A stretch of 64,000 nt of DNA from Seiridium cupressi (taxonomy: Eukaryota > Ascomycota > Sordariomycetes > Amphisphaeriales > Sporocadaceae), in NCBI GenBank assembly GCA_036674765.1, contig JARVKI010000032.1, forward strand, positions 310,001 to 374,000, given 5' to 3'. Position 1 is the first letter of the stretch; every line of letters starts with the position of its first letter. The notes below the pieces were generated by a model that saw nothing but the letters and a program-made list of their open reading frames with translations, searched no databases and was not told the DNA's origin. Both the position numbers and the translations under genes were made by a program. Positions 38,995-56,053 of this stretch are shown here, in pieces.

Positions 38995-40898
38995 TCACGC
39001 AATCCTGACTCGTTGCGATCGTACAGCGCAACTTCGTACCATTAATCTCCAGAACGCGTCGTGTGCCGCAAAGAGTTGAGCTCTGGACTGTTCCTCTTGG
39101 ACCGCCTCTTTCGCTTGTCTGTAATTCTCATTGAAACATGAGTTCCAGAGCTCGAACTCGGGAACCCATTCACCATGAGACGGAGGCTCCGCGTAACTCC
39201 TCAGCTCCCCAATGCGAGCAAAGGAGAGAAAGGACCGCAAGGATAGAGGCAGCAGACTGAACGTTACGGGCAGCGGAGGTAATGTAGCCTCCGAACTTTG
39301 ATCCTGAGAATCGACGAGGCCACTCCCGGGATCGAGGATACTATGCTTGGTTCAATCATCACTGAGAGGGTACAACAGGGAGACAGGAACACATACCATG
39401 CTCTAATTTCAGTCACAGATAGAGGGAAAGCGGTGGCGGCTTTTTCGATTGGTAGATATACCAAATTTTCGGGTTTGGAATCATGTAGCACCAGTGCCGG
39501 ATCGAATAGAGACGTAGGCTGGGTGGGAGAGACTAGATGTAAACGCCAAGAGCGAGTTAAGAGGGAACTTTTCGCATCTGCTGACATCAGTTCAAAGAGC
39601 TGGCTCTTCATGGGAAAACAAAGGTAACGTTGAGGTGCTCTGTATAAGGAATCCAGCACAAGCCACTGGCCAATTGTGTGCCTAATTTTGATCAGATTGA
39701 CCTCGACAGACTGGGCGTTGCCTTTGTGAATCGATTCCGGATGCCAATTGTCATCCGAAGAAGAGTTGTTTTCGCGTGCCGCGGATATATTCCCTGTGAA
39801 GCTCCAATCGGGCACCCATGATGGTAATGCAATTAGCGACCGATATCTGAAACCAGCCCGTGCAAGGACTTGGCCCCATCCATATGTAGAGGCTAGATGC
39901 AAAGCCAATTGAATGTATAACTGTTCAACCGAAAGAGTATAATCCGATCCGATACCGCCGATGCGTCTGTTAGGCAAGAGTCCCAACAGTGCATACACCT
40001 TGTCTCGGGGATCTCTTGCATGGCATTTTCGGCCATGGTCTAATAGGAGAAGCTCCTGATCCGGATCTGAGTACACGTTTCGACGAAGCGTGAGGATAGA
40101 TGGCCCTTGCTCCACCTTGGTGGACTGGATATAATGGCCAATGAAGTGTCCCCAAGGTATAGCATTGCAGCCGCAGATAAGGACGGCGCGTCTAGCCAAT
40201 ACGACCTCCTGGAGAACCCATACGCGAGTGAAATAACGCCGCAACACAATATTGCCCCAAGCATGGCTGTCGTGGATAAGTCCACTCTCAGGTATGATTT
40301 TCCCATGATGTAGAGCAATTTCGAGGCTCCTGATGAGGCGTTTACTGTCATTGCCATGTTCGCCGATGTAAACGTATACTGTTTGGGCCAAGGAGTATAT
40401 CTGAGGCATAAGCTCGACCTGATGACCTCGCTCCTGATCATTGTCCTGATCAATGCAAACAGCGTCAATCCATATTCGCACATTCGCAGTCTTTCGTCGA
40501 GCCCTGCGCAGGGCCGCTTCGCAATTGCGAGTGACCTTGTAGGGTTTGTTATCCAGATAGATGAACTTGCATCTGCTGTCATCCCCACTCTCGTCTGCCC
40601 AAGTATATGAGATCGCATTGAACTCTGGCAGGGCGCTGAGGTTGCGGGTGCTGATTTGGCAGTTAATTACTGCACCGTCATGTCCAGGATGGATTTGCAG
40701 CAGTCGAATTTCTGATTTATGCTTGATTGGTGGAAGGGAAGCTGCAGACTCCAACATGGAAGAACCACAGCTGAGACAAGCCTTCCATCCGTCGAAACGG
40801 ACCAGGTCGAGGCGACGACATGATGCATCATGCCATCCCATGTTTAAAAAGGTTCCCAAACCAGGCTGCTGGATTGATCTGGCGTTGGAGCTGCTCAA
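38995..40898 (-). CDS. HET-domain protein
   Basis: Minus strand. A long exon runs from 40898 to about 39400, then an intron with a gtatgt or gtgttc donor near 39398 and a ctcag acceptor near 39300, then a last exon to 38995. The donor is uncertain: the strong gtatgt gives the wrong phase for the last exon; gtgttc fits. HET landmarks are FNAISYTWADES, IWIDAVCIDQDN (near residue 150), the YIGE segment, RYFTRVWVLQEV and RDPRDKVYALLGL. HET proteins act in heterokaryon incompatibility and other regulated cell death in filamentous ascomycetes; the domain is related to TIR. The first 60 residues hold CLSCG and may be linker. A shorter start at a later Met is possible. No partner gene such as het-like NLR is adjacent. 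Confidence 0.85.
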
Positions 40899-43326: not shown

Positions 43327-45174
43327 TCAAACAACGCTGCCCTTGATCTGGTGTATGTCCTTAATCTTGATATCTCTCCACAACCAGGTACAGACCCAGG
43401 CAGCGCCCAGGAGCGTTATAGCTGCAATGAGCATATATCTTTGCGCTTCTGCGTACGCATAGCTGATCCCGACTCGTATAGGAGTGCCTAAACGATAGCC
43501 TAGTTGAACGTAGATGCTGCTGTAAATCGTATCGACCGGTGTACCGGGTGGTAGATTCCTGGCAAGCGCAGCCGGAAACACCCCAGTCCAGATTGCAGCT
43601 GACACAGTCGAGCCAAGTGCCGTGCCGACGCTTCCAAAGAGGTCTAGAATGGCAAGAATGGCCGCGATGTGCTGATGACCGACAGGTGCCATCATTGCCA
43701 GCTCAGCTGAAGTGACTACTGGCCCTCCCGCAAAGGCGACGAACACCTGGGTCATGATGACCAAGCCGATGTCTACATTCGGTTGCCGGAACTGTATCAT
43801 GAGGCCGACGCCGAGCATCATCAGAGGAAGTGCATAATAACCCGCAACCCACTTGAATCTGCCCGTCCAGCGAATGAAGAAGCCAAGAATCAACGCAGAG
43901 AAGCACGAGCCAACACGGTAGATGTTGCTGATATACGTCGCTTTGGTGAGACTCTGATTCCAGGCAACCAACAGCATTGAGTTGAAGTAGGAACCCCAGA
44001 TCGCCGAGTTGAAAAACACAAACACCAACATGATCCCAGCGGAGAGCACAGTGCGATCTCCGAGAAGGTGCATAGGAATGAAGTTGACCGGTGCCCAAAA
44101 CTTCTCGAACAGCACGAAGGCAATGACCAGAAGTCCGCCGACGACGATCATGGCAATGATCATGGGCGACCGCCAGCCATCCGTTTGGTATGAATAGACG
44201 TTCATGGGTAACAGGAGTAGCGCCATACCAGCGGCAAGGAGGAAGACACCCAACGAGTCAAATTGGATGGCGAATTCCTTCAGGCATGTCTTTTCCCGCG
44301 GCGGAGGGACAAGACCCAACTTCTTCGCCTTGTGTTGGTTCCACATGAAAACGACGATCAGAGGCACGACGACCACTGGCACGATGATGGCAAAAGACAC
44401 CAAAACCCCATCGCCAACCTGGACCAGCTACGAATGCATCCGACATGGGTCTACCAACCCACATAGTGACGATGTAGGGAGATGTAGCGAACGAGAGCAT
44501 AAAGAGCTCGGTTCTTAAGAGCGGATGTGTCGGCGACGAAGATTGTCAAACAGTAGCTTACGCCTTGTGCGCTATAGTAGTCGTCAGACCTCAAGACCAT
44601 GTCGTTCGATAAGCATAGCAACTTACCCTACAGTCGAAAACACCAACGCCGCGGCATAAGTCTCGACATTGTGGCAATTGGCCATCATGATGAACCCGAG
44701 GACCCAGAAAAGTAGCATCAATTGCGATACCTTGTGGTCGCCCCCATATATCAACGATCTTAGCAAGGGGTATTTTTGAAAGCCGTTCGATGATGCTGGA
44801 GATCACGGTCGAAGTGGCGGTCAGGGAATGAAGAGCGAAGCTGCTAGTCACGAAAGGCGTCAGAGCGCGCACTACAACCTCGTTGATCGAGGTGACGAAG
44901 TAGACCAGCCATATTCTAGTAACGCAATACGTGAGTTATACGGCCCACATAGCATGCTGGGGAGGACATACAATCCGTAGGCAATCACTAAGTCCCATTT
45001 CCCCCAGACTCCCGCCGCAGCCTCGATGGCCTGGACACCATGCTGAGCATCGACAGTGACTATTTCATCCTTGCTATCGTGCGGGAAGGTCGAGTTCTGG
45101 TGAGCGTTGTTATTGCTAGACAGCTCCAAATCTTCGCAGGGTGTTGTGCGTGGTTTTTCCATTTTTGAATCCAT
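43327..45174 (-). pseudogene. Siderophore-iron-transporter-like MFS carrier with three frame shifts
   Basis: Minus strand. ATG at 45174; an acidic N-terminal tail, then VWGKWDLVIAYGL joined over a 56-nt intron to IWLVYFVTSINEVVV, and HSLTATSTVISSI with LAKIVDIWGRPQG. These and VFMWNQHKAKKLGLVPP in the middle match fungal SIT-family carriers (14 helices). A second intron (about 44628-44573, gtaagt to tag) fits. Frames shift by one base near 44718, near 44508 and at the A4 run 44392-44395. The last 358 residues (to 43327) are one clean frame. Intact relatives import ferric siderophores across the plasma membrane with protons. An iron-GATA consensus lies in its divergent promoter. Either recently inactivated or affected by indel errors. 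Confidence 0.82.
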
Positions 45175-45802
45175 GAACCAAGGTCGCGAGTAGGTTTGGA
45201 GGATAGGTTAGAAGATTTGCACTGTTTCCATTGAAGTTTCACTTCTTCTGTCTTGAAATAGCGATCTAGTGTCGTCGTCAGTCTACTACGGGTATCGACA
45301 CGATGGGTTTCGAGCACGAGTCCTCGCAGAGAGCACCTCTGACCATGTGCGATGTCGGAAATACGATTCTGCCAAGCCATTGAAACCGACTCGACACGAG
45401 TCGCCTGCCAATTGCGGCAACTCTCGGCACATGAGAGGGGCTGTCATCGACTCGGAGAACCGCACGCTAAGCACCACGCAACGACCGAGTGCTCCATCAT
45501 ATTGGCGAGAAGCCTAATACTACCATGACGGGCGACTAGGCCGAACAGGGGTACTCAATGCCCGGACATGATCACCAACTTGATCAATAAGTGTCGTGCG
45601 ATCGATCTGATAAGATTACTGACCGAGGTCTCATACGGGGAGTCCCGGAGGAACCGAGTCACGATGGGGATGTGAGGCGTGTTGCAGTGCAGCAGGTTTT
45701 GGACCGCCAAGGCTTGGCCGGATGAGTGAGCTGCACGTACTTGAAGGGAGGTTGCAGCCCAAGTCACTCGTTTTACCGATATATCCTGAATCTCTCAACA
45801 AC
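45175..45802. promoter_or_regulatory. Divergent promoter region, siderophore carrier / CFEM protein
   Basis: 628 bp between two start codons. It contains GATCTGATAAG (the iron-GATA site annotated separately), 190 bp from the CFEM start. Confidence 0.5.
45604..45613 (+). promoter_or_regulatory. SreA/SRE-type iron-GATA site (RATCWGATAA)
   Basis: GATCTGATAA is an exact match to the consensus reported for fungal iron-repressor GATA factors (SreA, SRE, Sre1). It is 190 bp upstream of the CFEM ATG and 430 bp upstream of the siderophore-type carrier. Confidence 0.55.
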
Positions 45803-46414
45803 ATGAAGTTCTCAGCTACCGTTCTAGCCCTTGCTAGCGCTGCCACTGCTTCCACCATTGCCGACTTCGTACCAGAGTGTGCTGTCAGCTGTCTCGAGGA
45901 CGGCGTCAGTTCATCGACTCCTTGTGCAGTCGATGATCTTACCTGTGTCTGCGTAGCCGACAATTACCGCGCTACTTACACTGCCGCCCTCTCTTGCGTT
46001 CTCGCAGCTTGTGGTGCCGATACTGCTATTGGTAAGTCAGCATTCTTCGAACTACTGCGTACATTGACCTTGGCAAGAATATCTCTGATTCCAAATCTAG
46101 GAGAGGTCCTCCCAGGAGCGACCCACATGTGTGAAGTCGTTCTGTCAAGCACTTTCAGCTCTGCGGCGCCTTCAACCACTGCCTCCACTCCATCATCCAC
46201 CCTCGCTACTGAGGTGCCGGCTTCAACCACTGAGATCAGCACCAGCGTTGCTACCACAGCTGCGACTACTCCAGCCACTACTTCCTATGTCGCTACCAGC
46301 AGTTCCTCAGCCCCACCAACGACCACCAACATCGTCACTGCTGGAGCTGCATACACTCAGCAGAGTTTTGGCATGATTTCTTGTCTTGTCTTTGGTGTTC
46401 TGGCTTGGATCTAG
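45803..46414 (+). CDS. CFEM-domain GPI-anchored cell-surface protein
   Basis: Two exons, 45803-46031 and 46101-46414, around a 69-nt intron (gtaagt to tag). The product is 180 aa. Signal peptide MKFSATVLALASAATAST. The CFEM domain has all eight cysteines in family order (ECAVSC, PCAVDDLTCVC, SCVLAAC, HMC), including an Asp in CAVDDLTC at the place where heme-binding CFEM proteins use an axial Asp. A Ser/Thr-rich stalk follows. The C-terminal hydrophobic FGMISCLVFGVLAW is a GPI signal. CFEM proteins of Candida take up heme iron; in filamentous fungi some are effectors. Next to a siderophore-type carrier with an iron-GATA site between them, an iron role is the best guess. Intact. Confidence 0.9.
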   Translation: MKFSATVLALASAATASTIADFVPECAVSCLEDGVSSSTPCAVDDLTCVCVADNYRATYTAALSCVLAACGADTAIGKSAFFELLRTLTLARISLIPNLGEVLPGATHMCEVVLSSTFSSAAPSTTASTPSSTLATEVPASTTEISTSVATTAATTPATTSYVATSSSSAPPTTTNIVTAGAAYTQQSFGMISCLVFGVLAWI

Positions 46415-47059
46415 ACAGGAACTTGTGAACGACATGTCGCGATGAGGTTTTACGTGAGGGAACGGGAGCTGTTATTGATTATTTCGCGTGGCGTAGTTGC
46501 AATATGATCATTCTTCTCCTGTCACTTATCGATGTCTTCGTGTTACTTTGTTTCATCATTATCTAGACAGAAGCTCGCGGTAGATTAAATTCCTAGTGGA
46601 TATTGTAATTTGCGAAGTGAACTATCTTGTTTTCTCTATTACTCACTTTATGCTCTGTACTTGCCCCAGCCTTCCTACACTGGCGACCTTTTTCTTCTGC
46701 GGATCCGGCTTAGCATGCGAATTTTCATGACTGATAATTCCCTCTTTTGTACCAGACTATTAGCTTCTCAAAAAACCCGCTTCGTCCGGCGGTGAGCATG
46801 TTTTAACGGTTGCAGCAGTAAGACCCGGTGATCGGATCTTGGTAACCTCTGAACTACAGAGCTGACCCTGACGTCGCGGTACAAGGCACCCCGTATTTGA
46901 GGAAGTTCTTTTCTCCGCATGGACGATGTAACATCGTCGATCGTGTTCACGGTCACGACGAGCTCGGCCTAGCAGCTGACAGTGTTGCACGGCTGCACTA
47001 ATGTACCGCTTACGGTATAGACTGGTCAGCCTCAATGGGCACTATACACAGACCAGATG

Positions 47060-47069
47060 GATCTGATAA
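47060..47069 (+). promoter_or_regulatory. SreA/SRE-type iron-GATA site
   Basis: GATCTGATAA, an exact RATCWGATAA match, about 400 bp upstream of the flavoprotein ATG; forms an inverted pair with the next site. Confidence 0.55.
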
Positions 47070-47112
47070 GATAATAATTACATTAACTCTAAGCGAAGAA
47101 ACTAGTTTAAAG

Positions 47113-47122
47113 TTATCAGATC
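47113..47122 (-). promoter_or_regulatory. SreA/SRE-type iron-GATA site, inverted
   Basis: TTATCAGATC reads GATCTGATAA on the minus strand. It is 53 bp (start to start) from its partner and 345 bp upstream of the flavoprotein ATG. Confidence 0.55.
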
Positions 47123-47466
47123 GCGCTTGTGACGCCCGTCGGATTGACCAATCGGCCATCTATAGCCAGATGTGAAAGCTGCTGAACCTGTCGTGTTGCT
47201 CTTCCCCACCTGCGGGCTGAACACCCTTTCCGGGGTCGATCAGACCTGGCGGGACTCGAATTGGGCGGCCAGATCGCCCGAGTACTGGCGGAAAACTCTT
47301 CTTCTCGCAGGCATGACTCCACTGGCCAGCTTGTTGTTTCTGCGTGGAAATTTTCTGGAAAACCGGATGCCTGTCCACGAACGGTGGCCCGGCCTCGAGG
47401 TCAGTCTCTCCGTACCGGAGGGTTTGGGCGAGCTTCGCCTCTCGCTTCAACGCGTATTGTGTCGAG

Positions 47467-48919
47467 ATGACTTCCAATACTGCTACCTACAACGCCACAA
47501 AACCTGCCAGAGTGTTTGTTGTGGGAGGGTGTTATGCAGGACTGGCAGCGGCTATTGCAATCCTTGAAAGGTGCGACATTGCGAGTCCGCCTATTCCTGT
47601 CTTGATCACCATTGTCGATGAAAGAAACGGCTTCTGTAAGACACCTCATGAAAGATGGCCTGACTCATCTAATGATTCCGCGTAGACCATGTGATTGGCA
47701 CTCCATTGGCATTGGCAGACAAAACCTATGCGGAGAAAGCATGGGTTAAGTTCCGCGATATCAACATATTGCAACGACCCGACGTTCGATTTATACACGG
47801 CAGCGTGAAAGCAGTGAATTGTGATGCAAAGTCGGCGCGAATAGCAGTGGGAGAGAAAGAGGTAGTCGAAGGATATGACTACTTCATCGGTGCCACCGGG
47901 CTTCGTAGAGTATGGCCGATTGTGCCACAAGCGCTCACTCATACCTCGAGGAAGCCTGCAAACATATCGATTCTATAGGCAGGAGCAAGCACCAATCCTG
48001 GTCATTGGCGGTGGTGAGCTCGTCCCTCAGCAATTCTCTCGATAGATAATCACTCCTGAAAGGCGCTGTCGGCATAGAAATGGCCGCTGAGCTCAAGTTA
48101 TGGCATCCAAACACTAGAGTGATACTCGCGCATTCGAGAGATAAACTGCTTTCTGCTGAGCCACTCTCTGATACTTTCAAGGAGCGCTCGATCAGGATAC
48201 TTCGAGAGTCCGGCGTTGAAGTAATTTTGAATCATAGGCTTTCTGAAAGCAAGTCGATTGAGGAGGGGAACGAGGTCTACTTCACGAACGGCGAAAGGTT
48301 GACAGCTGGCGTCATCGTCATGGCAATCTCGAGAAGTGTGCCATCCACCGACTTTCTTCCAAAAGAGGCGTTGGACCAAGATGGATACGTCAACATACTT
48401 CCAAGTCAACAGTTTTGTGGAAATGTACCAAACTCTGCTGTGCATTTTGCAGCAGGTGACATGATCAATTGGTCTGGCATCAAGCGGTGCGGATCGTCAA
48501 TGCACATGGGTAAGCTGGTAGGATGGAATGTCTACCAGTCGATAATGAGAGATCTTTCGCGGTCAATCGAGGAGCCAAAGTTCAAAGAGCTGGGCCCAGT
48601 TTCGCCCATGATCACTATTGCGGTGGGGAAAAAGGCTGATCCTGTGGGCCACGAGGTACGACATCCGGAAAGCGGACAATGAGACTCTTCTTTGAAGATG
48701 ATCTTGGCTTTAGAAGTAAGTCACGACAACATGATAATTCGATTTCATGGAGCTTAATACTAATAGAATACAGTTGTTTGGGATTACCTTCGTCTAGGGT
48801 ACAAACCAGGATCTGTTTTGACATGGAAGCAGTCAGCCGTCAATATCTTAGTATACATGTTCCCGGAAGTACGATCAATCTGGACAAAACTGGTGCGCAC
48901 TGAGAACAAGAAGGCATAG
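47467..48919 (+). pseudogene. AIF/FSP1(AMID)-like FAD oxidoreductase with frame shifts
   Basis: ATG 47467. The FAD-binding GGCYAGLAAA motif is near residue 20. The frame then splices well over 47636-47685 and over 48014-48062. Between these, conserved sequence (YLEEACKHIDSI, then PILVIGGG joined to AVGIEMAAELKLWHP) lies in two further frames, so one-base losses lie near 47938 and 47985. A third shift lies near 48670, before FFEDDLGF and a last intron (gtaagt at 48716) to the final exon ending at 48919. The FAD-aspartate region FAAGDMINW is intact. Intact relatives are NAD(P)H quinone oxidoreductases on lipid droplets or mitochondria. Two iron-GATA sites sit upstream. Confidence 0.78.
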
Positions 48920-49483
48920 ACCGAGGGAATACTTTATCATAGGATTTTGTCCGGTCCAGGTTACTCGCAAAAATTTGTTCCATGTTCAGCAGTTGTACTA
49001 TGCTAAATGAGAGCGTGCTGCATCAATGAGCAACATCTTGCAAGTAATTGATGGGTTTTAATCTGGCGTACAATAGTCTACCAAGTGTCTATTATTCTAA
49101 CTAATTGGCGCAAACTATGTCCATTTAGTTGAGTGTTGAACATGTCAATCAGTGGAGCAGCCAATTTACTACGAGGTACTGTGCTGACTTGGCACGTACC
49201 TATATAGGCAAGAACACAAGCCGTGGCGTCTCGGCTGGCTTCATGCAGGCAGGCAAAGCGGTGCTTCGCTTAATGAACAAAAAACATTCAGAATGAGCCG
49301 AGAAAGTGACCACCGAGAAGGTGATCCAGCCATATTATGTTACACTTAAAATCTCTAACGTACATTGTAGTCTTACCGACAACGGTTGCTACCCCCTACC
49401 CTGGGCTCTGCTAATCCCAACGCCACGAGCGCTAGACTCCAACGCCAAGTAAACCTCCTTAGCGAATAGGAACCATTGTTCAA
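48920..49483. other. Convergent intergenic stretch, nothing supported
   Basis: AT-rich; holds the 3' ends of the flavoprotein and acetyltransferase genes. Confidence 0.4.
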
Positions 49484-50372
49484 TCAGGAATGGAGAAAAC
49501 TGGTGATAACCTTGACAATTCGTTGGATCAGGCCACCGACAATTGGAACCTGCGGCCACATGAGAGATGCTTGGGCAGGTCGCTCAAAGTCGGGGTACCC
49601 TTGAGCACGCCACTCATCAAAAGTAATGTGAGCGAAGGAAGGCATCCTGACCATCAGCGGAACCTCAATGTCGGCTTCTGTTCCGAGCGTCTCTTTCTTA
49701 TGCACGATCTTCTCCTTCAGGATGACAAATCCCATTTTCTTGTAGAGGGGCATGGTTGTTGGCGATGATTCCAGATAGATGGGCAGTCCAGACCTGTCAC
49801 AGAGGTCAATGCCCCATTCGATCAGCGCTCGACCCACTCCACGTCGTTGATAGGCTGGGTGAACGGCAATGGCATGAACATCTGGAGGAGAATGGTGGTT
49901 AGTGACTGCTCGTAGACGGAGATGGCGTAGTGTAGAGAGCTTTACAGATATGTCTCGCGCCAGCAAAGAGATGCTCCCTCATCTCTGCAAGTGGCCCGAT
50001 GACTTTCTCGGCGCGTACTCTGTCTTCTCCATCCAACCAAGGGATACCGCTGAACTTGCGCTCTTCTGCGGGCCGTTCACGCAAGAGGATATCTCCAAGG
50101 GCCATGCCCATGACATCTCCTGAATGATTATCGACACATTTGAAAGTGTACTGCGAGTCCGCAGAATGCCAGTAGGCGAGAGTACCCGCGGAGTGATTTT
50201 GCCTGAAGTCCTCGGAGTCCATGACGCCGCCTGGGAAAATGATAGTAACCATCAACCGTGCCATCTTCTCGTTCAGGAACGAGGCAAAGTATACATCACA
50301 GACTTTCTTGATATCCGGGATCAGAGCTGGGAGAACCACGGGGTGGCAACTGGAAATCTTGCCTTCTTCCAT
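49484..50372 (-). CDS. GNAT-family N-acetyltransferase
   Basis: Minus strand, exons 50372-49946 and 49881-49484 around a 64-nt intron (gtaaag to cag). The product is 274 aa with the start at ATG 50372 (MEEGKISSCHP). The acetyl-CoA motif A is VHPAYQRRGVGRALIEWG, followed by YLESSPTTMPLYKKMGF, the usual motif-B end of fungal GNATs that acetylate small molecules. The first 130 residues are a variable domain with DVYFASF. Substrate not readable. Relatives include acetylases in secondary-metabolite and siderophore pathways, but I cannot place this one. It has an iron-GATA consensus 200 bp upstream and sits near siderophore-type genes. Intact. Confidence 0.85.
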
Positions 50373-50571
50373 TTTTGACAAAGTGTTAAGTTCACAGTTG
50401 ACGACGCCGGCACGGCAAGGTAGCAAGGCGCCATCTCGGCTACAATATATCAGATTTTGCTTCGGGTTACTTAGAATGCCATAAATCTTGGCATCTACTA
50501 AATACGAAGCTTTGGAAAATGGTGATATGCTTGCAGCTGGATGCGGGCTAGGGTCTCAGCTCGGTTTTAGG

Positions 50572-50581
50572 TTATCTGATC
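50572..50581 (-). promoter_or_regulatory. SreA/SRE-type iron-GATA site upstream of GNAT gene
   Basis: TTATCTGATC reads GATCAGATAA on the minus strand, an exact RATCWGATAA match, 200 bp upstream of the minus-strand acetyltransferase ATG. Confidence 0.5.
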
Positions 50582-53272
50582 CGAGGGCTCCGAATGCTTC
50601 CCACCTCGGTATGCTTGCCGAATTGACCCTCTACACACTTTGGCGATGGTCAAAAATCTAATTCAGACTAGCCAATGGTGTACTCGTGCTTGCGGACGTG
50701 CAAGCCCAACATGGAAGGTGGGTATCGGCAAAAGTTGTCTTAGTGTGAGGGCCTACCATCATTTACCTTCTGAGCTGTAAAGTATGACTCTGCATGGCGG
50801 ATAAAAGCCGTCACATCCTACGCCACAGCGCGGTGGCAGATATAGTTGAGTAAGGGCTGCCGTGTTTATAAGATCAATAGACTTGTTACCGCTCCTGTCA
50901 CGGAAATCTATTTCGAGTTTGCCGTTTTTAATTTATTGTAATATCTCTGAGATGCCTTGGCTATCTTATCACGTCAGCACATCTATCTAAATTTGTGGAA
51001 AGTAATGGTAGGGGTCTTAACGAACCTCAAAGACAAGCGATTGGGATTTTGGTGGCTTCGAATTTGTGCCAATGATCCCACTGGGAATCAGATGGTCGTA
51101 TGCAGGATTCGTGCGAGACCCTGAACCTGATTCTAGTTCGGCGTGCAATTTCCTCTCGGAACAATATAATTACGGATCGGGCTGTGCTTCCTCGACCGTG
51201 ACTTTCCGTTGATGATGGTAGCCTTGTACATCAAGATCGTTTTTATATATGGAATGAGAACGCTGGCTGCCGTTTGCATTAGTTTTCGTGCTAAGAAACG
51301 GTTCCCTGTCTCTGGCATATACGAGAATTGGTGGCGTTGTGCTTGGCTTCACAGTCTCTAGATATCTTTCATAATATGGGCGGTGGTATCAGAGCCTTCT
51401 CAATACCTTGGAGGAAGATCACGATGATACGCGTCACTCCATATGATCGATTGGAGTCCTGTACCAGCAAAGTTAACACAGACCGTGTGAAGATAGCATG
51501 TGACAGTACTTTACGTGGTTGACTTTTCTGTCGTCATGCAGGTTTCCTACCACGATCACAGCGCTTCTCCTCCCCTGTTCAGCACAATCTCGAACTGTCT
51601 CGTCTACATACGAAGGTTGAGATCCTGGAAAGCTTTTGAACGGACCCCATCGTTTCAGGTTGTAGCCCAGCTCGTTGACCCTGTACTTGATAAGCTCAAC
51701 CACGAACGACACGGAGTACGAAGTTACAACTTACGTGACGTGCGCGTCGCCCTAATGTTGCTCCAGCAAATAGGCAGTGGTGTTGATCACAGAACGCGGC
51801 ATTCTTTGTCCTGAGAGCTGGAGGACATTGCCTGCGCAGTGTGAGTTCAGCATCCGCCGGACTTTTCTTGACCCCGACCGTTGACCTTGTTGGGTTTTCT
51901 GACATGATGGCCATATGCGAACCCGCACCGACGTGACTGGACATTCTGTGCGCAAAGAAACGACACAGAAACTCAAGCCGAATTCCTCTCAAGCCGTCTT
52001 GAATAGTTGTGAGGGCTAGAACACTTAGACTGATACTGCGTATCTTCAGGGGTGGGTTCGAAATATGGAGTCAGCAGAACCAGCACAATGCTCGGTCAAC
52101 TTTATGAGTCGTAGGCTTTTTGTGACGGACAGACTGGCAAGATGAGCTTCTGCGCAGGCTGACGTTACATTGTACATTGTAGGGGAGCATGCACTGCCAG
52201 CTACAGCCCTCCTTTCCACCCTCCGAAGCTTGGCAATCCAGTTGAAGGCTGTGTACAGCGGGACATGGTTGGATGACATGGTTGGATGATCACGATATCC
52301 TGATGAATAGATTAGGCGAACAATAGCGAAGCTTCTCTTTCAGCAGCGACCTGGTCAATGCCTGCTATTGGCTGTTAAACATGGCGCGGTGATTCCACAC
52401 CCTCCAACGGCCTAAGTGTACACGGCCTAGGTGTACAGATACAGCTAGAGGAAATATGTTGAACATGCCAAACTATTTCTTGTGACTGGGCATACGGAAG
52501 CAGTTGTTCGGATGCAGCTTCTTGGAGTATTACCGCTTTACTGAGCAGGTTCGGGGACCTCTGAGTTAGGCGATCAATTACTGTCGGATGAGATTTTGCG
52601 TGGCTAAAATGTTTCCCTGGCTTCGCCTAGCCTGACGCGTGATGACTGACGTAGGAGGCACTGTTCCATCTTACCCCGGATTGGTGATCGTGGCGCTAAA
52701 ATTGCAAAAATGCAGCCAAAACGCGTCGCAGCCTCGTGTCTAGATAGGAAAGTCTCGCAACTGCGAGTTTTTACACTTGCGAGTTTTTACACTTGCGAGT
52801 TTTTACACTTGCGAGTTTTTACACTTGCGAGTCTATACGTTCGCGAGTCCTCTCTCTGCGAGAACTGCACTCGGCAGTCGCTTCTCAGTAAATATCAGTA
52901 CATATCTAGAGATGTCGCCCGATAAAGGTGGAGGCAGCCTTGCCCTGGCGTCTTGCCACGCTGGCGAGTCAAATCTCGCAAACGCGAGGTTTCCCTTGAA
53001 GGATTTGATTGAGGACTGAACTTTCCATATAATTTGACGTTTATTGGACAGTTGCCACCCTCAGACTCCGCTAGCATTCACAACTGCATATCTATTCGTT
53101 ATAGATAGACCCCAACAGCGAATTACGTTGGAGGCAAATTGTCAAGCCTTGCTTGAACAGTTCTACAGCTGTATGTGATCAGTGATGGAGAAGCGTCCGC
53201 TCGCTATCCTCCCCTTCAATCCCTCTGAACTCCCATTTACCAGCGTCAGGTTAGTTTCACCAAAGGCCCCCG
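50582..53272. other. Long intergenic region with a minisatellite
   Basis: 2.7 kb without a supported gene. ORFs are short and unrelated. The notable content is the 16-bp tandem repeat at 52763-52862. Confidence 0.5.
52763..52862. repeat. Minisatellite, 16-bp unit GCGAGTTTTTACACTT
   Basis: Four perfect copies (52763-52826), then two degenerate ones (GCGAGTCTATACGTTC, GCGAGTCCTCTCTCT) and a closing GCGAG. Reverse-complement CTCGC words flank it (52754, 52976). The unit is not a multiple of three, so it is not coding. It begins 510 bp upstream of the HET-C2H2 gene. Confidence 0.85.
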
Positions 53273-56053
53273 ATGGCCTTCAACTACAGCGCCCTTCATG
53301 GGCCTGGGTGGATCAGGCTCATCCGTCTTACTCCAGAAAATAGCCATTCTGATAAGTTGACATGTTCAGTAGAGCAAATCAAATTGACATCTGCTTCCGA
53401 AGTCGAATTCGAAGCGTTGTCTTACGTTTGGGGTCAATCAGAACCCCACTCCATCATTGAATGTGACGGCAATGCTCTCCGAATCACATCGAACCTCCGC
53501 CAAGCACTACTCCATCTACGGAGCACTGGCCACAGAACCTTGTGGATTGATGCTATCTGCATCAATCAAAGGGATACACTGGAAAGGAGTTCGCAAGTTT
53601 CGTTGATGGGGAAGATCTTCCAAGCAGCGAAGAATGTCGTGGTCTGGCTCGGTGAAGAGGCCTCTGGAGATCAGACATTGAACATTACACCTTACGACAT
53701 AGGGCGAGGCGTGGAGGAAGAGATCATCTATGGCAAGCCCCTACTTTATTTGACCCGTCCGTGGTTCAGTCGAGCGTGGGCGCTACAAGAGGCTATGTTG
53801 GCCAGGCGAATGACGATATTACTGGATGACGAAGAAGTGCAATGGGACAAATTCTGGGCTCGAATCTCCTCTGAACTCCGGCATACTCTCGGCACCGCTA
53901 GAGACCCTCCTGCAATCACTAAACCAGCACTGCGGTTCTATGCTCTAGCGTCTACGAGCAAGCTGATCAAGTTCATGTATGACGATCCAATAGCGTCGTG
54001 GGCCGTCGAGGACTTGGATCTTTCGAAGACTGCGAATGCAGAGTTCAAACGAATTCTGGAATTTTCGCGTACTCTCAATGTGACCGATCCCCGGGACAGG
54101 ATCTACACTTTACTATGGGTGTTCCAGACAATGGGTATCAATGTGCCTCCGCCGGACTACACGAAGCATACTGAGACAGTCTTCCAGGAGCTCTACACTG
54201 CCGTTGGAGATGTTCCATTCCCATGGCGACCTATGCGTGGCTGGGAAAAGCATGTCGATAACACGGCCCTTCGTTCGACAGGCGCGAAGTGGAGAGTCAA
54301 GACAACCGGTAACGGAGAATATAACCCTACGCTCAAGAGTCTTCATCACGGAGATCTCCTCGTATTTCTGGAAGCCAAGACCCGAATCACGGGGGAAGCC
54401 CAGATTGACAACGCAAAAGCACTGCCTATTCACTCCGTCTCAAATATCCCGACTCGCGAAGAGAGTATGGAATCACCCACGACCACAAATGACAAAAATG
54501 CTAGAGAGAATATACACGCCCCACCTGAGAAACCACGCGGCTACGATGAGGATACACGTATGCCAGAAGGTTTGCATCTGTTTGCCCATCAAGAACCTAG
54601 GAATGTTGAAGAGAACAAGACAATCTATCATTCCTTCTTCGACGATATCCTTCGGTATGAGAAAGAACTTCTTATGACTCGAGTCCTCCACTACCTTGGC
54701 TGCCCTTGGTCTTATGACATGGTCGTCAACGGGAACGGTGATACGGACGCACCAGAAACGACTTCGAACTCAAGCAGTGACACGAAGTCTAGCTCCACCA
54801 ACTGGTTATCCAAAGAGACCAAACTTGACAACCCAAAGAAAAGGTCAGGTCCTAGACGCAAGAGAGACAGGAATGACGAGGATGACGAGGATGATAAAGA
54901 CGGAGACGAAGCACCTTCCAAGAAGCGCCCGGCTTCGGATCCCCGCGATAGGCTAGCTTGCCCATACTTCCAGAGAAACATCAAAGATCATCGATTCACT
55001 AGAGCGTGCAGAGGTCCAGGCTTCATTGATATTGCTAAGCTCAAGTAAGTTGTCAAAACACTCTTGTATCGGATGAAATCTCACGTCTATAAGGGAACAT
55101 CTGTATAGAAGTCATCGCATCTTCCCCTGTAATCGATGTGGAACTGTGTTCAAGGAGAGAGACAGTCTAAGAGCACATCAGCAGCAGCATCAAGGATGCA
55201 GTGCAAGTGATTTAGGAGTAACATTTGATCGGGCCGAGGGTTTCGACGATCAGCAATATGACGAACTCCACGCGAAAACGGTGCGCTCTTGGTGCCACGT
55301 GTTCAAAATCCCTTTCCCTGATGACCCTCGAAATTCTTATCCACCTGAACGTAAGTCTTCATATGAGATTAGAAACTAGGGTAGCGGCTAACGGAGTACC
55401 TATGCCTCTTAGATTATCGCAACATACAAGTCCATGAGATCATTGAGGACGTCCGTTCCCATTTTTCACGAGAATCAGAACGACTGATGCCACGATACGC
55501 AACGCCGGCTTTCCGCTTCTCACTGGAGGATATGACGCAAGACGAATTCTGTGCTTCCCTTCATCAGCTAGTACATACTATCTTTGATGAAGGTTTGAGA
55601 TCTTATAGAGTAGATCCTCCTACAGAAGTAACCACCAGCGCAGCTGCCGGCCCTGAAGAAGGGCATAATGCCGCAGCATATGCTGACACCCCAACACCAT
55701 GGAATATCTTTGGAGATTACCTACTTCAGGTAACCCCAGACGGTGTTGCATCTACCATGCAGCAGGTCCCAGATACCGGACTTGGGAGTGGTTGGATGGG
55801 CAATGCATTCAATCTCGGGCCACAGACATCTGACGACGAGCAAATGCGACAGGCTGCAGGCAGAGCTGATGACCCTATGGCTGAAGTTCGACCTCAAGCT
55901 CAGGTACCTCCAGGTGCAGGTGCATGGATTGGAAGGTCTCAAACATTGGTGAACTCCCTCGGCCATGGACCGTGGCATGTTGTGCATGGTGGTAATAATG
56001 TCGAAGACGAGAACAGTAACATTGATGACTTGTGGGATTTGGGCGAGCGATGA
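53273..56053 (+). CDS. HET-domain protein fused to a C2H2-like zinc-finger tail, 884 aa
   Basis: Three exons: 53273-55044, 55109-55350 and 55413-56053; introns 64 and 62 nt, phase-consistent. The HET domain (about residues 40-190) shows FEALSYVWGQSE, TLWIDAICINQRD, VVVWLGEEA and RPWFSRAWALQEA, then DPRDRIYTLLWVF near 270. A low-complexity linker has basic clusters (KKRSGPRRKR) followed by an acidic run (about 520-555), a likely nuclear signal. Then comes LACPYFQRN and CRGPGF and, over the intron, FPCNRCGTVFKERDSLRAHQQQHQGC. This is the C-P-(F/Y)-x-K/RN ... C-x2-C ... H-x4-H pattern of a fungal C2H2-type family. HET proteins act in incompatibility and cell death. The fusion suggests a nuclear or nucleic-acid-sensing version (inference). 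Intact. Confidence 0.9.

What the first reader, a model, noticed from the sequence alone, without database searches (positions are those of the whole stretch)
45604..50581. Cluster of four exact iron-GATA consensus sites around siderophore/CFEM/flavoprotein/acetyltransferase genes
Reading both strands, I find exact matches to RATCWGATAA (the SreA/SRE/Sre1 iron-repressor consensus) at 45604, 47060, 47113 (inverted) and 50572 (inverted), and did not notice others elsewhere. By composition about 0.5 match is expected in 64 kb on both strands; here four fall in 5 kb, all intergenic. They lie 190-430 bp upstream of a siderophore-type MFS carrier and CFEM protein, an AIF/FSP1-like flavoprotein and a GNAT acetyltransferase. 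This suggests an iron-repressed accessory cluster, perhaps linking heme/siderophore capture with lipid-quinone redox protection. Two members carry frame shifts, so the system may be decaying or the assembly may contain indels.
Basis: partly seen in the sequence, partly recalled or inferred. Interest (0 to 1): 0.8.

Follow-up and report, generated by a model that had tools for sequence, protein, structure and literature searches.

The report
Iron-switch sites on fungal iron-uptake genes
A tree-infecting fungus carries a small four-gene cluster, probably for taking up iron-carrying molecules, whose promoters hold an unusual crowd of binding sites for the known fungal iron switch; two of its genes are broken here but intact in a sister species.

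Summary
Four RATCWGATAA sites lie in the window, in the three intergenic stretches of a MirB-type siderophore carrier, a CFEM protein, an AIF/FSP1-like flavoprotein and a GNAT. The genome (45.36 Mb) has 351 sites, about 0.50 per 64 kb. Among 333 listed, only two places hold four within 5 kb: this one and contig C80, which carries a flavoprotein paralogue beside a siderophore-type acyltransferase. Four of 8 strong carrier homologues have a site within 3 kb upstream (0.18 expected), 0 of 15 weaker MFS homologues. An SreA-type gene exists. The window is inferred to be Seiridium cupressi. Locus tags place carrier, flavoprotein and GNAT together in S. unicorne, with partial linkage elsewhere. Carrier and flavoprotein are frame-broken here, intact in S. 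unicorne. The motif, and SreA control of an AMID-like oxidoreductase, are in print; my searches listed no paper on this gene set. Best reading: a known-type SreA-regulated iron cluster with an unusual membership. Iron response, heme capture and quinone protection are untested.

The parts
45604..45613 (+). RATCWGATAA site (GATCTGATAA) in the shared carrier/CFEM intergenic stretch
   Evidence: intergenic
47060..47069 (+). RATCWGATAA site upstream of the flavoprotein gene
47113..47122 (-). RATCWGATAA site, inverted relative to 47060, upstream of the flavoprotein gene
50572..50581 (-). RATCWGATAA site (GATCAGATAA) upstream of the GNAT gene
43330..45174 (-). MirB-type MFS siderophore carrier, frame-broken in this assembly; intact 573-aa orthologue in S. 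unicorne
45803..46414 (+). CFEM protein, 180 aa if the GT-AG intron 46032-46100 is removed (that intron is in frame and has no stop); eight cysteines before a Ser/Thr-rich stretch and hydrophobic tail
47467..48916 (+). AIF/AMID/FSP1-like FAD-NAD(P) oxidoreductase, frame-broken in this assembly; intact 434-aa orthologue in S. unicorne
49484..50372 (-). GNAT acetyltransferase, two exons, intact; not matched by the siderophore acyltransferase family PF13523

Best explanation
The four sites are binding sites of the SreA-type GATA repressor. When iron is plentiful SreA shuts off four neighbouring genes; when iron is scarce they are switched on together. The cluster is an accessory iron-acquisition unit: the MFS carrier imports a ferric hydroxamate siderophore (possibly another microbe's), the CFEM protein helps to capture iron or heme ligands outside, and the AIF/AMID-type flavoprotein and the GNAT handle the cargo or the redox load inside. 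Shown here: the sites, their excess, their recurrence at other iron genes, an SreA-type gene, gene identities, linkage in relatives, breaks in two genes. Inferred: SreA occupancy, iron repression, and every biochemical role. In this S. cupressi assembly the unit is partly disabled, by recent mutation or by sequence errors.
For: Motif excess and clustering against simulation and a reversed-motif control. Recurrence at iron genes: 4 of 8 strong siderophore-carrier homologues have a site within 3 kb upstream of the matched piece, 0.18 expected; without the window 3 of 7; 0 of 15 weaker MFS homologues. The flavoprotein's only close paralogue found in the genome (57% identity, C80; one search had 4 matches, the others 30-35%) has three ATCWGATAA sites upstream and stands beside a PF13523 siderophore-type acyltransferase with three more. 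SreA-type gene with two GATA fingers and a Cys-rich stretch between them. Linkage: in S. unicorne GNAT, flavoprotein and carrier carry locus tags SUNI508_04604, _04605 and _04607, contig length 565,526; in Xylariales sp. PMI_506 GNAT and flavoprotein have consecutive tags and share a contig length with the carrier homologue. The five cluster-type flavoproteins are one side of a branch among 119 rows, SH-aLRT 100.
Against: No expression or binding data. CFEM genes as a class are not tied to the motif: 2 of 29 have a site within 3 kb upstream (0.67 expected), one of them this one. Four of 8 strong carrier homologues lack a site. The SreA-type gene has no listed site within 3 kb upstream. No promoter from a relative could be read, so site conservation is untested. 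Two of four genes are broken, so the unit may not work in this strain. Expected numbers assume uniform placement. The S. unicorne tag 04606 fits CFEM but that protein was not searched or seen. The tree is a quick one and three of the five cluster rows have long end branches.
Confidence: 0.75

Rival explanations
1. The sites serve another GATA factor (nitrogen regulator AreA type, or a developmental or light-response GATA factor), so the cluster answers to nitrogen or light rather than iron.
For: Eight GATA-finger matches, merged to seven genes, were found, and GATA factors share the core motif (my knowledge); a nitrogen link is conceivable since an ammonium-transporter frame lies 10 kb away.
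Against: The ten-base extended motif is the one tied in print to SreA-type regulons (PMC2275787 passages; PMC2610380 passages), and here it recurs at siderophore-carrier and siderophore-type acyltransferase genes.
Confidence: 0.1
2. Chance clustering: 351 sites scattered over 45 Mb will now and then fall four to 5 kb, and the gene identities make a story.
For: 5 of 2000 uniform simulations had such a cluster somewhere; this window was picked because of it.
Against: Two such clusters exist and both hold a member of the same flavoprotein family; promoters of other siderophore carriers carry the motif; the listed part of the reversed motif does not cluster.
Confidence: 0.08
3. The locus is a decayed remnant (compatible with the best explanation for the ancestor): in S. 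cupressi the carrier and the flavoprotein are dead and only CFEM and GNAT remain under iron control.
For: By my reading three frame changes not explained by introns in each of two genes; deposited S. cupressi models are short, 526 and 310 aa, against 573 and 434 in S. unicorne.
Against: Protein identity to S. unicorne in the pieces computed (carrier 96%, two flavoprotein pieces 93 and 95%) is close to that of the intact GNAT (96%), as expected for sequence errors or very recent loss. No reads were available.
Confidence: 0.45

Closest known systems
Histoplasma capsulatum SID1 siderophore cluster with OXR1 and the (G/A)ATC(T/A)GATAA consensus (PMC2275787, passages)
   Same: Identical ten-base consensus in the upstream regions of a co-located iron gene set that includes an oxidoreductase, an acetylase and, in one strain, an MFS transporter.
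   Different: Histoplasma's cluster makes siderophores (SID1, NPS1, SID3, SID4, ABC1). The window cluster has no siderophore synthesis gene that I found, but a carrier, a CFEM protein and a GNAT without PF13523 match. Whether OXR1 is the same flavoprotein family was not tested; two of the 120 listed hits bear that name.
Aspergillus fumigatus SreA regulon, SRGC2 with sidC and Afu1g17180 (PMC2610380: abstract, passages and section 11)
   Same: ATCWGATAA enriched upstream of SreA-repressed genes, many of them clustered; siderophore carriers included; Afu1g17180, labelled AMID-like in PMC10455693, is a member.
   Different: The main text held has no occurrence of CFEM or acetyltransferase and I saw no carrier-CFEM-flavoprotein-GNAT set in what I read; its Table 2 and supplements were not seen. 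Orthology of Afu1g17180 to either Seiridium flavoprotein was not tested.
AIFM2/FSP1 (ferroptosis suppressor protein 1) and AMID-like oxidoreductases
   Same: Closest solved structures of the flavoprotein family by sequence: profile E-values from 1.2e-26; single exon piece 3.9e-6.
   Different: Quinone reduction and membrane targeting not shown; the cluster type has a C-terminal extension, seen in P0141, P0144 and P0145 and not in the other seven rows of the alignment; the gene model P0143 of the same clade ends before it.

Membership tests
SreA-type iron regulon | extended motif (R)ATCWGATAA in the promoters | tested here: met
   1, 2 and 1 sites in the three intergenic stretches
SreA-type iron regulon | an SreA-type repressor (two GATA fingers with a Cys-rich stretch between) encoded in the genome; layout recalled, not from a call | tested here: met
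   (C132)
SreA-type iron regulon | same motif at other siderophore genes of the genome | tested here: met
   4 of 8 strong carrier homologues; 1 of 3 PF13523 genes; the best PF13434 match (SidA candidate) has one site 2.3 kb upstream of the matched piece
SreA-type iron regulon | transcript repressed by iron in an SreA-dependent way | not testable with these tools
   needs RNA, with and without sreA
MirB/Arn-type siderophore carrier | sequence membership | tested here: met
   515 proteins at E <= 0.001 (120 listed), several named siderophore iron transporter mirB at 60-66% identity; the 366-aa piece alone gave no Pfam match at E 0.001
MirB/Arn-type siderophore carrier | intact open frame in this genome | tested here: not met
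   frame changes not explained by introns; the S. unicorne orthologue is intact
CFEM family | CFEM domain with eight cysteines | tested here: met
   PF05730 37.4 bits, cut-off 22; cysteines at 26, 30, 41, 48, 50, 65, 70, 87 (a ninth at 171 is in the tail)
CFEM family | heme binding (known for some members; my knowledge) | not testable with these tools
   -
AIFM2/FSP1-like flavoproteins | sequence relation to FSP1 over the FAD/NAD domains | tested here: met
   the six best sequences are FSP1/AIFM2, E 1.2e-26 to 3.9e-24; next best 4.4e-10
AIFM2/FSP1-like flavoproteins | NAD(P)H:quinone reduction that protects lipids | not testable with these tools
   -
siderophore acyltransferases (PF13523) | PF13523 match of the cluster GNAT | tested here: not met
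   one search gives Acetyltransf_7, _1, _10 and _9 but not PF13523 for the second exon piece, and nothing for the first; one search finds PF13523 only on C23, C80 and (below the cut-off) C92

The most novel reading that the evidence does not exclude
The cluster-specific flavoprotein (its own clade, with a C-terminal extension) and the GNAT form an undescribed module that processes an imported siderophore inside the cell: the flavoprotein supplies electrons to release the iron and the GNAT acetylates the freed ligand. The module travels as a gene block through distant ascomycetes (Seiridium, Xylariales, possibly Rhinocladiella) under one iron switch.
Probability: 0.12. Interest if true: 0.65.

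Novelty: new variant of a known kind. Interest (0 to 1): 0.4.

Why it matters
How fungi release iron from imported siderophores and deal with the empty ligand is poorly known (my own knowledge). A conserved iron-switched block that pairs a siderophore carrier with a flavoprotein and an acetyltransferase would name two candidates. The finding also suggests that the extended GATA motif alone can point to the iron genes of an unstudied fungus: the two four-site clusters seen in this genome both fall on siderophore-related loci.

Tried and rejected
Pfam and NCBIfam on pieces of the broken carrier gave nothing; its identity rests. The idea that CFEM genes as a class carry the motif was rejected: 2 of 29. 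The idea that the GNAT is a siderophore acyltransferase was rejected. HapX-type composite sites: CCAAT boxes near the sites were listed, the spaced composite motif was not tested, and no HapX gene was sought. Promoter conservation could not be tested: no DNA of relatives was at hand. Whether other genes of the window carry similar frame breaks was not tested. Nine literature searches listed no paper that by title or shown abstract describes this gene set; the library holds openly licensed papers only. Passages of PMC4783019 were read and not used.

Choices that affect counts: the 27 matches were merged by me to 23 genes (neighbouring pieces joined) and split, after seeing them, at the gap between E 7.8e-22 and 7.6e-13 into 8 strong and 15 weaker; PF13434 20 rows to 19, GATA 8 to 7, PF13523 4 to 3 (one of them below the family cut-off). 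Distances run from the matched piece, not from start codons. 18 of 351 sites were not listed by the tool and are not in these counts. The five cluster-type rows were named by me; one of them (Neoarthrinium moseri) has unknown linkage. Of 120 listed flavoproteins the one under 330 aa (the S. cupressi fragment model) was left out of the tree.
Full report
WHAT IS THERE. The four exact RATCWGATAA sites are real and are the only ones in the 64-kb window. They sit in the three intergenic stretches of four neighbouring genes, read from the sequence and from family and homology searches: an MFS carrier on the minus strand (about 45174 to 43330), a CFEM protein on the plus strand (45803-46414), an AIF-like flavoprotein on the plus strand (47467-48916) and a GNAT on the minus strand (50372-49484). 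Pfam finds CFEM (37.4 bits, cut-off 22), Pyr_redox_2 and Acetyltransf_7. The carrier piece has no Pfam match by itself but is 60-66% identical to several proteins named siderophore iron transporter mirB. The closest solved structures of the flavoprotein by sequence are FSP1/AIFM2 (by one exon piece; by a ten-sequence profile, E 1.2e-26).

WHOSE GENOME. The best match of the carrier is a protein named as Seiridium cupressi on a contig of 413,869 bp, the length of contig C32 that holds the window. A flavoprotein named as S. cupressi likewise lies on a contig of 205,742 bp, the length of C80. The organism's name is inferred from these matches.

IS THE CLUSTER OF SITES MORE THAN CHANCE? The genome has 351 sites in 45,361,241 bp, 185 and 166 by strand, and 184 of the reversed pattern. 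Four searches listed 333 of the 351 positions. Under uniform placement of 351 sites, pairs within 500 bp average 1.35 (largest of 2000 simulations 9); 13 were observed. Four sites within 4978 bp occurred somewhere in 5 of 2000 simulations; the listed sites have two such places, the window and C80:54507-58753. The first 100 of 184 positions of the reversed motif, which run up to C43, hold 0 pairs within 500 bp and 1 within 5 kb; the real motif on C1-C43 has 174 listed sites, with 5 and 16 pairs. The difference in numbers alone would predict about three times the control's pairs.

DOES THE MOTIF MARK IRON GENES IN THIS GENOME? Gene families were located in the genome and the sites upstream counted (3-kb limit, from the matched piece). 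Strong homologues of the window's carrier: 4 of 8 have a site, 0.18 expected; without the window 3 of 7, two of them with several sites (C90 three, C45 two). Weaker MFS homologues: 0 of 15. AIF-type matches: 3 of 4, of which one is the window and one (C77) is only 35% identical. PF13434 (monooxygenase-type) matches: 4 of 19, 0.44 expected; the best of these, the SidA candidate on C7, has its site 2.3 kb upstream. PF13523 siderophore-type acyltransferases: 1 of 3. CFEM: 2 of 29, 0.67 expected, so CFEM genes as a class do not carry the motif. GATA factors: 1 of 7.

THE SECOND CLUSTER. C80 (locus L012) repeats the theme. The only close paralogue of the flavoprotein found (57% identity over the exon piece) has three ATCWGATAA sites before it (positions 550, 594 and 709). 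Beside it, on the other strand, is a PF13523 acetyltransferase gene, the family of hydroxamate siderophore acyltransferases (my knowledge), with three further sites upstream. A siderophore-carrier homologue lies some 16-17 kb away on the same contig, without a listed site within 3 kb upstream. The pairing of flavoprotein and iron motif thus occurs twice in one genome, in two branches of the family.

THE SWITCH. Among the GATA-finger matches the gene on C132 has two GATA fingers separated by a cysteine-rich stretch with the spacing C-x5-C-x8-C-x2-C, the layout of SreA-type iron repressors as I recall it. It has no listed site within 3 kb upstream.

THE BREAKS. Compared with paralogues and the S. 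unicorne orthologues, the carrier and the flavoprotein each show, by my reading, three frame changes not explained by introns. Intact orthologues exist in S. unicorne: 573 aa and 434 aa. The GNAT aligns over its whole length in two exons at 96% and CFEM reads through. Identity in the computed pieces of the broken genes (96, 93 and 95%) is close to that of the intact GNAT (96%), so the breaks are either very recent or sequence errors; no reads were available, and other genes of the window were not checked for such breaks.

HOW IT MOST LIKELY WORKS. SreA-type repressors bind the extended GATA motif and keep iron-acquisition genes off in iron-rich cells. The simplest reading is that these four genes are switched on together in iron starvation. 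The carrier would bring in a ferric siderophore; since I found no synthesis gene in the cluster, a foreign siderophore is a fair guess. CFEM proteins can bind heme or iron ligands outside the cell (my knowledge). The flavoprotein could deliver electrons for iron release or protect against redox stress; the GNAT could modify the freed ligand. These roles are inference.

WHAT IS KNOWN. The ten-base consensus was derived from the Histoplasma siderophore cluster, whose members include an oxidoreductase OXR1 and an acetylase, and it was reported to bind the GATA factor Sre1 in vitro (PMC2275787, passages). In A. fumigatus ATCWGATAA is over-represented upstream of 49 SreA-regulated genes (PMC2610380, passages), and Afu1g17180 belongs to cluster SRGC2, which holds sidC (passages and section 11); a table in another paper labels Afu1g17180 as AMID-like (PMC10455693, one passage). 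In Blastomyces the factor SREB binds promoters of siderophore-cluster genes, of siderophore carriers and of a GNAT gene (PMC4482641, passages). ATCWGATAA was also reported in promoters of iron genes of Cladophialophora carrionii (PMC10382037, passages). So the regulatory principle and a link to an oxidoreductase are known; this particular gene set was not in the listings of the nine searches named under tried and rejected.

VERDICT. A sound observation. It is a new variant of a known kind: an SreA-type iron cluster with an unusual membership, partly broken in this assembly. The lipid-quinone idea rests on sequence resemblance alone.

Noticed in passing
window 39267-40898 (-) and 53255-55045 (+): Two heterokaryon-incompatibility (HET) domain genes lie on either side of the four-gene cluster.
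   Followed up: no
L016 (C90:68000-77900): A siderophore-carrier homologue (45% identical to the window's) has three RATCWGATAA sites upstream, spread over 351 bp.
   Followed up: partly
L005 (C38:293222 and 293253): Two sites 31 bp apart stand about 150-180 bp before the open frame of a CREG-domain protein; an unexpected candidate of the iron regulon.
   Followed up: no
L007 (C40:146119, 147836, 148088): Three sites lie between a protein with FAD_binding_1/NAD_binding_1 domains and an astacin-like frame.
   Followed up: no
L018 (C2:926486, 927805): A site pair near an MFS-like frame (by eye) and a 2OG-Fe(II) oxygenase frame.
   Followed up: no
G000:C54:8585 and C77:108416: Sites 649 and 480 bp before two PF13434-matching flavoprotein pieces; possible further iron-linked flavoproteins.
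   Followed up: no
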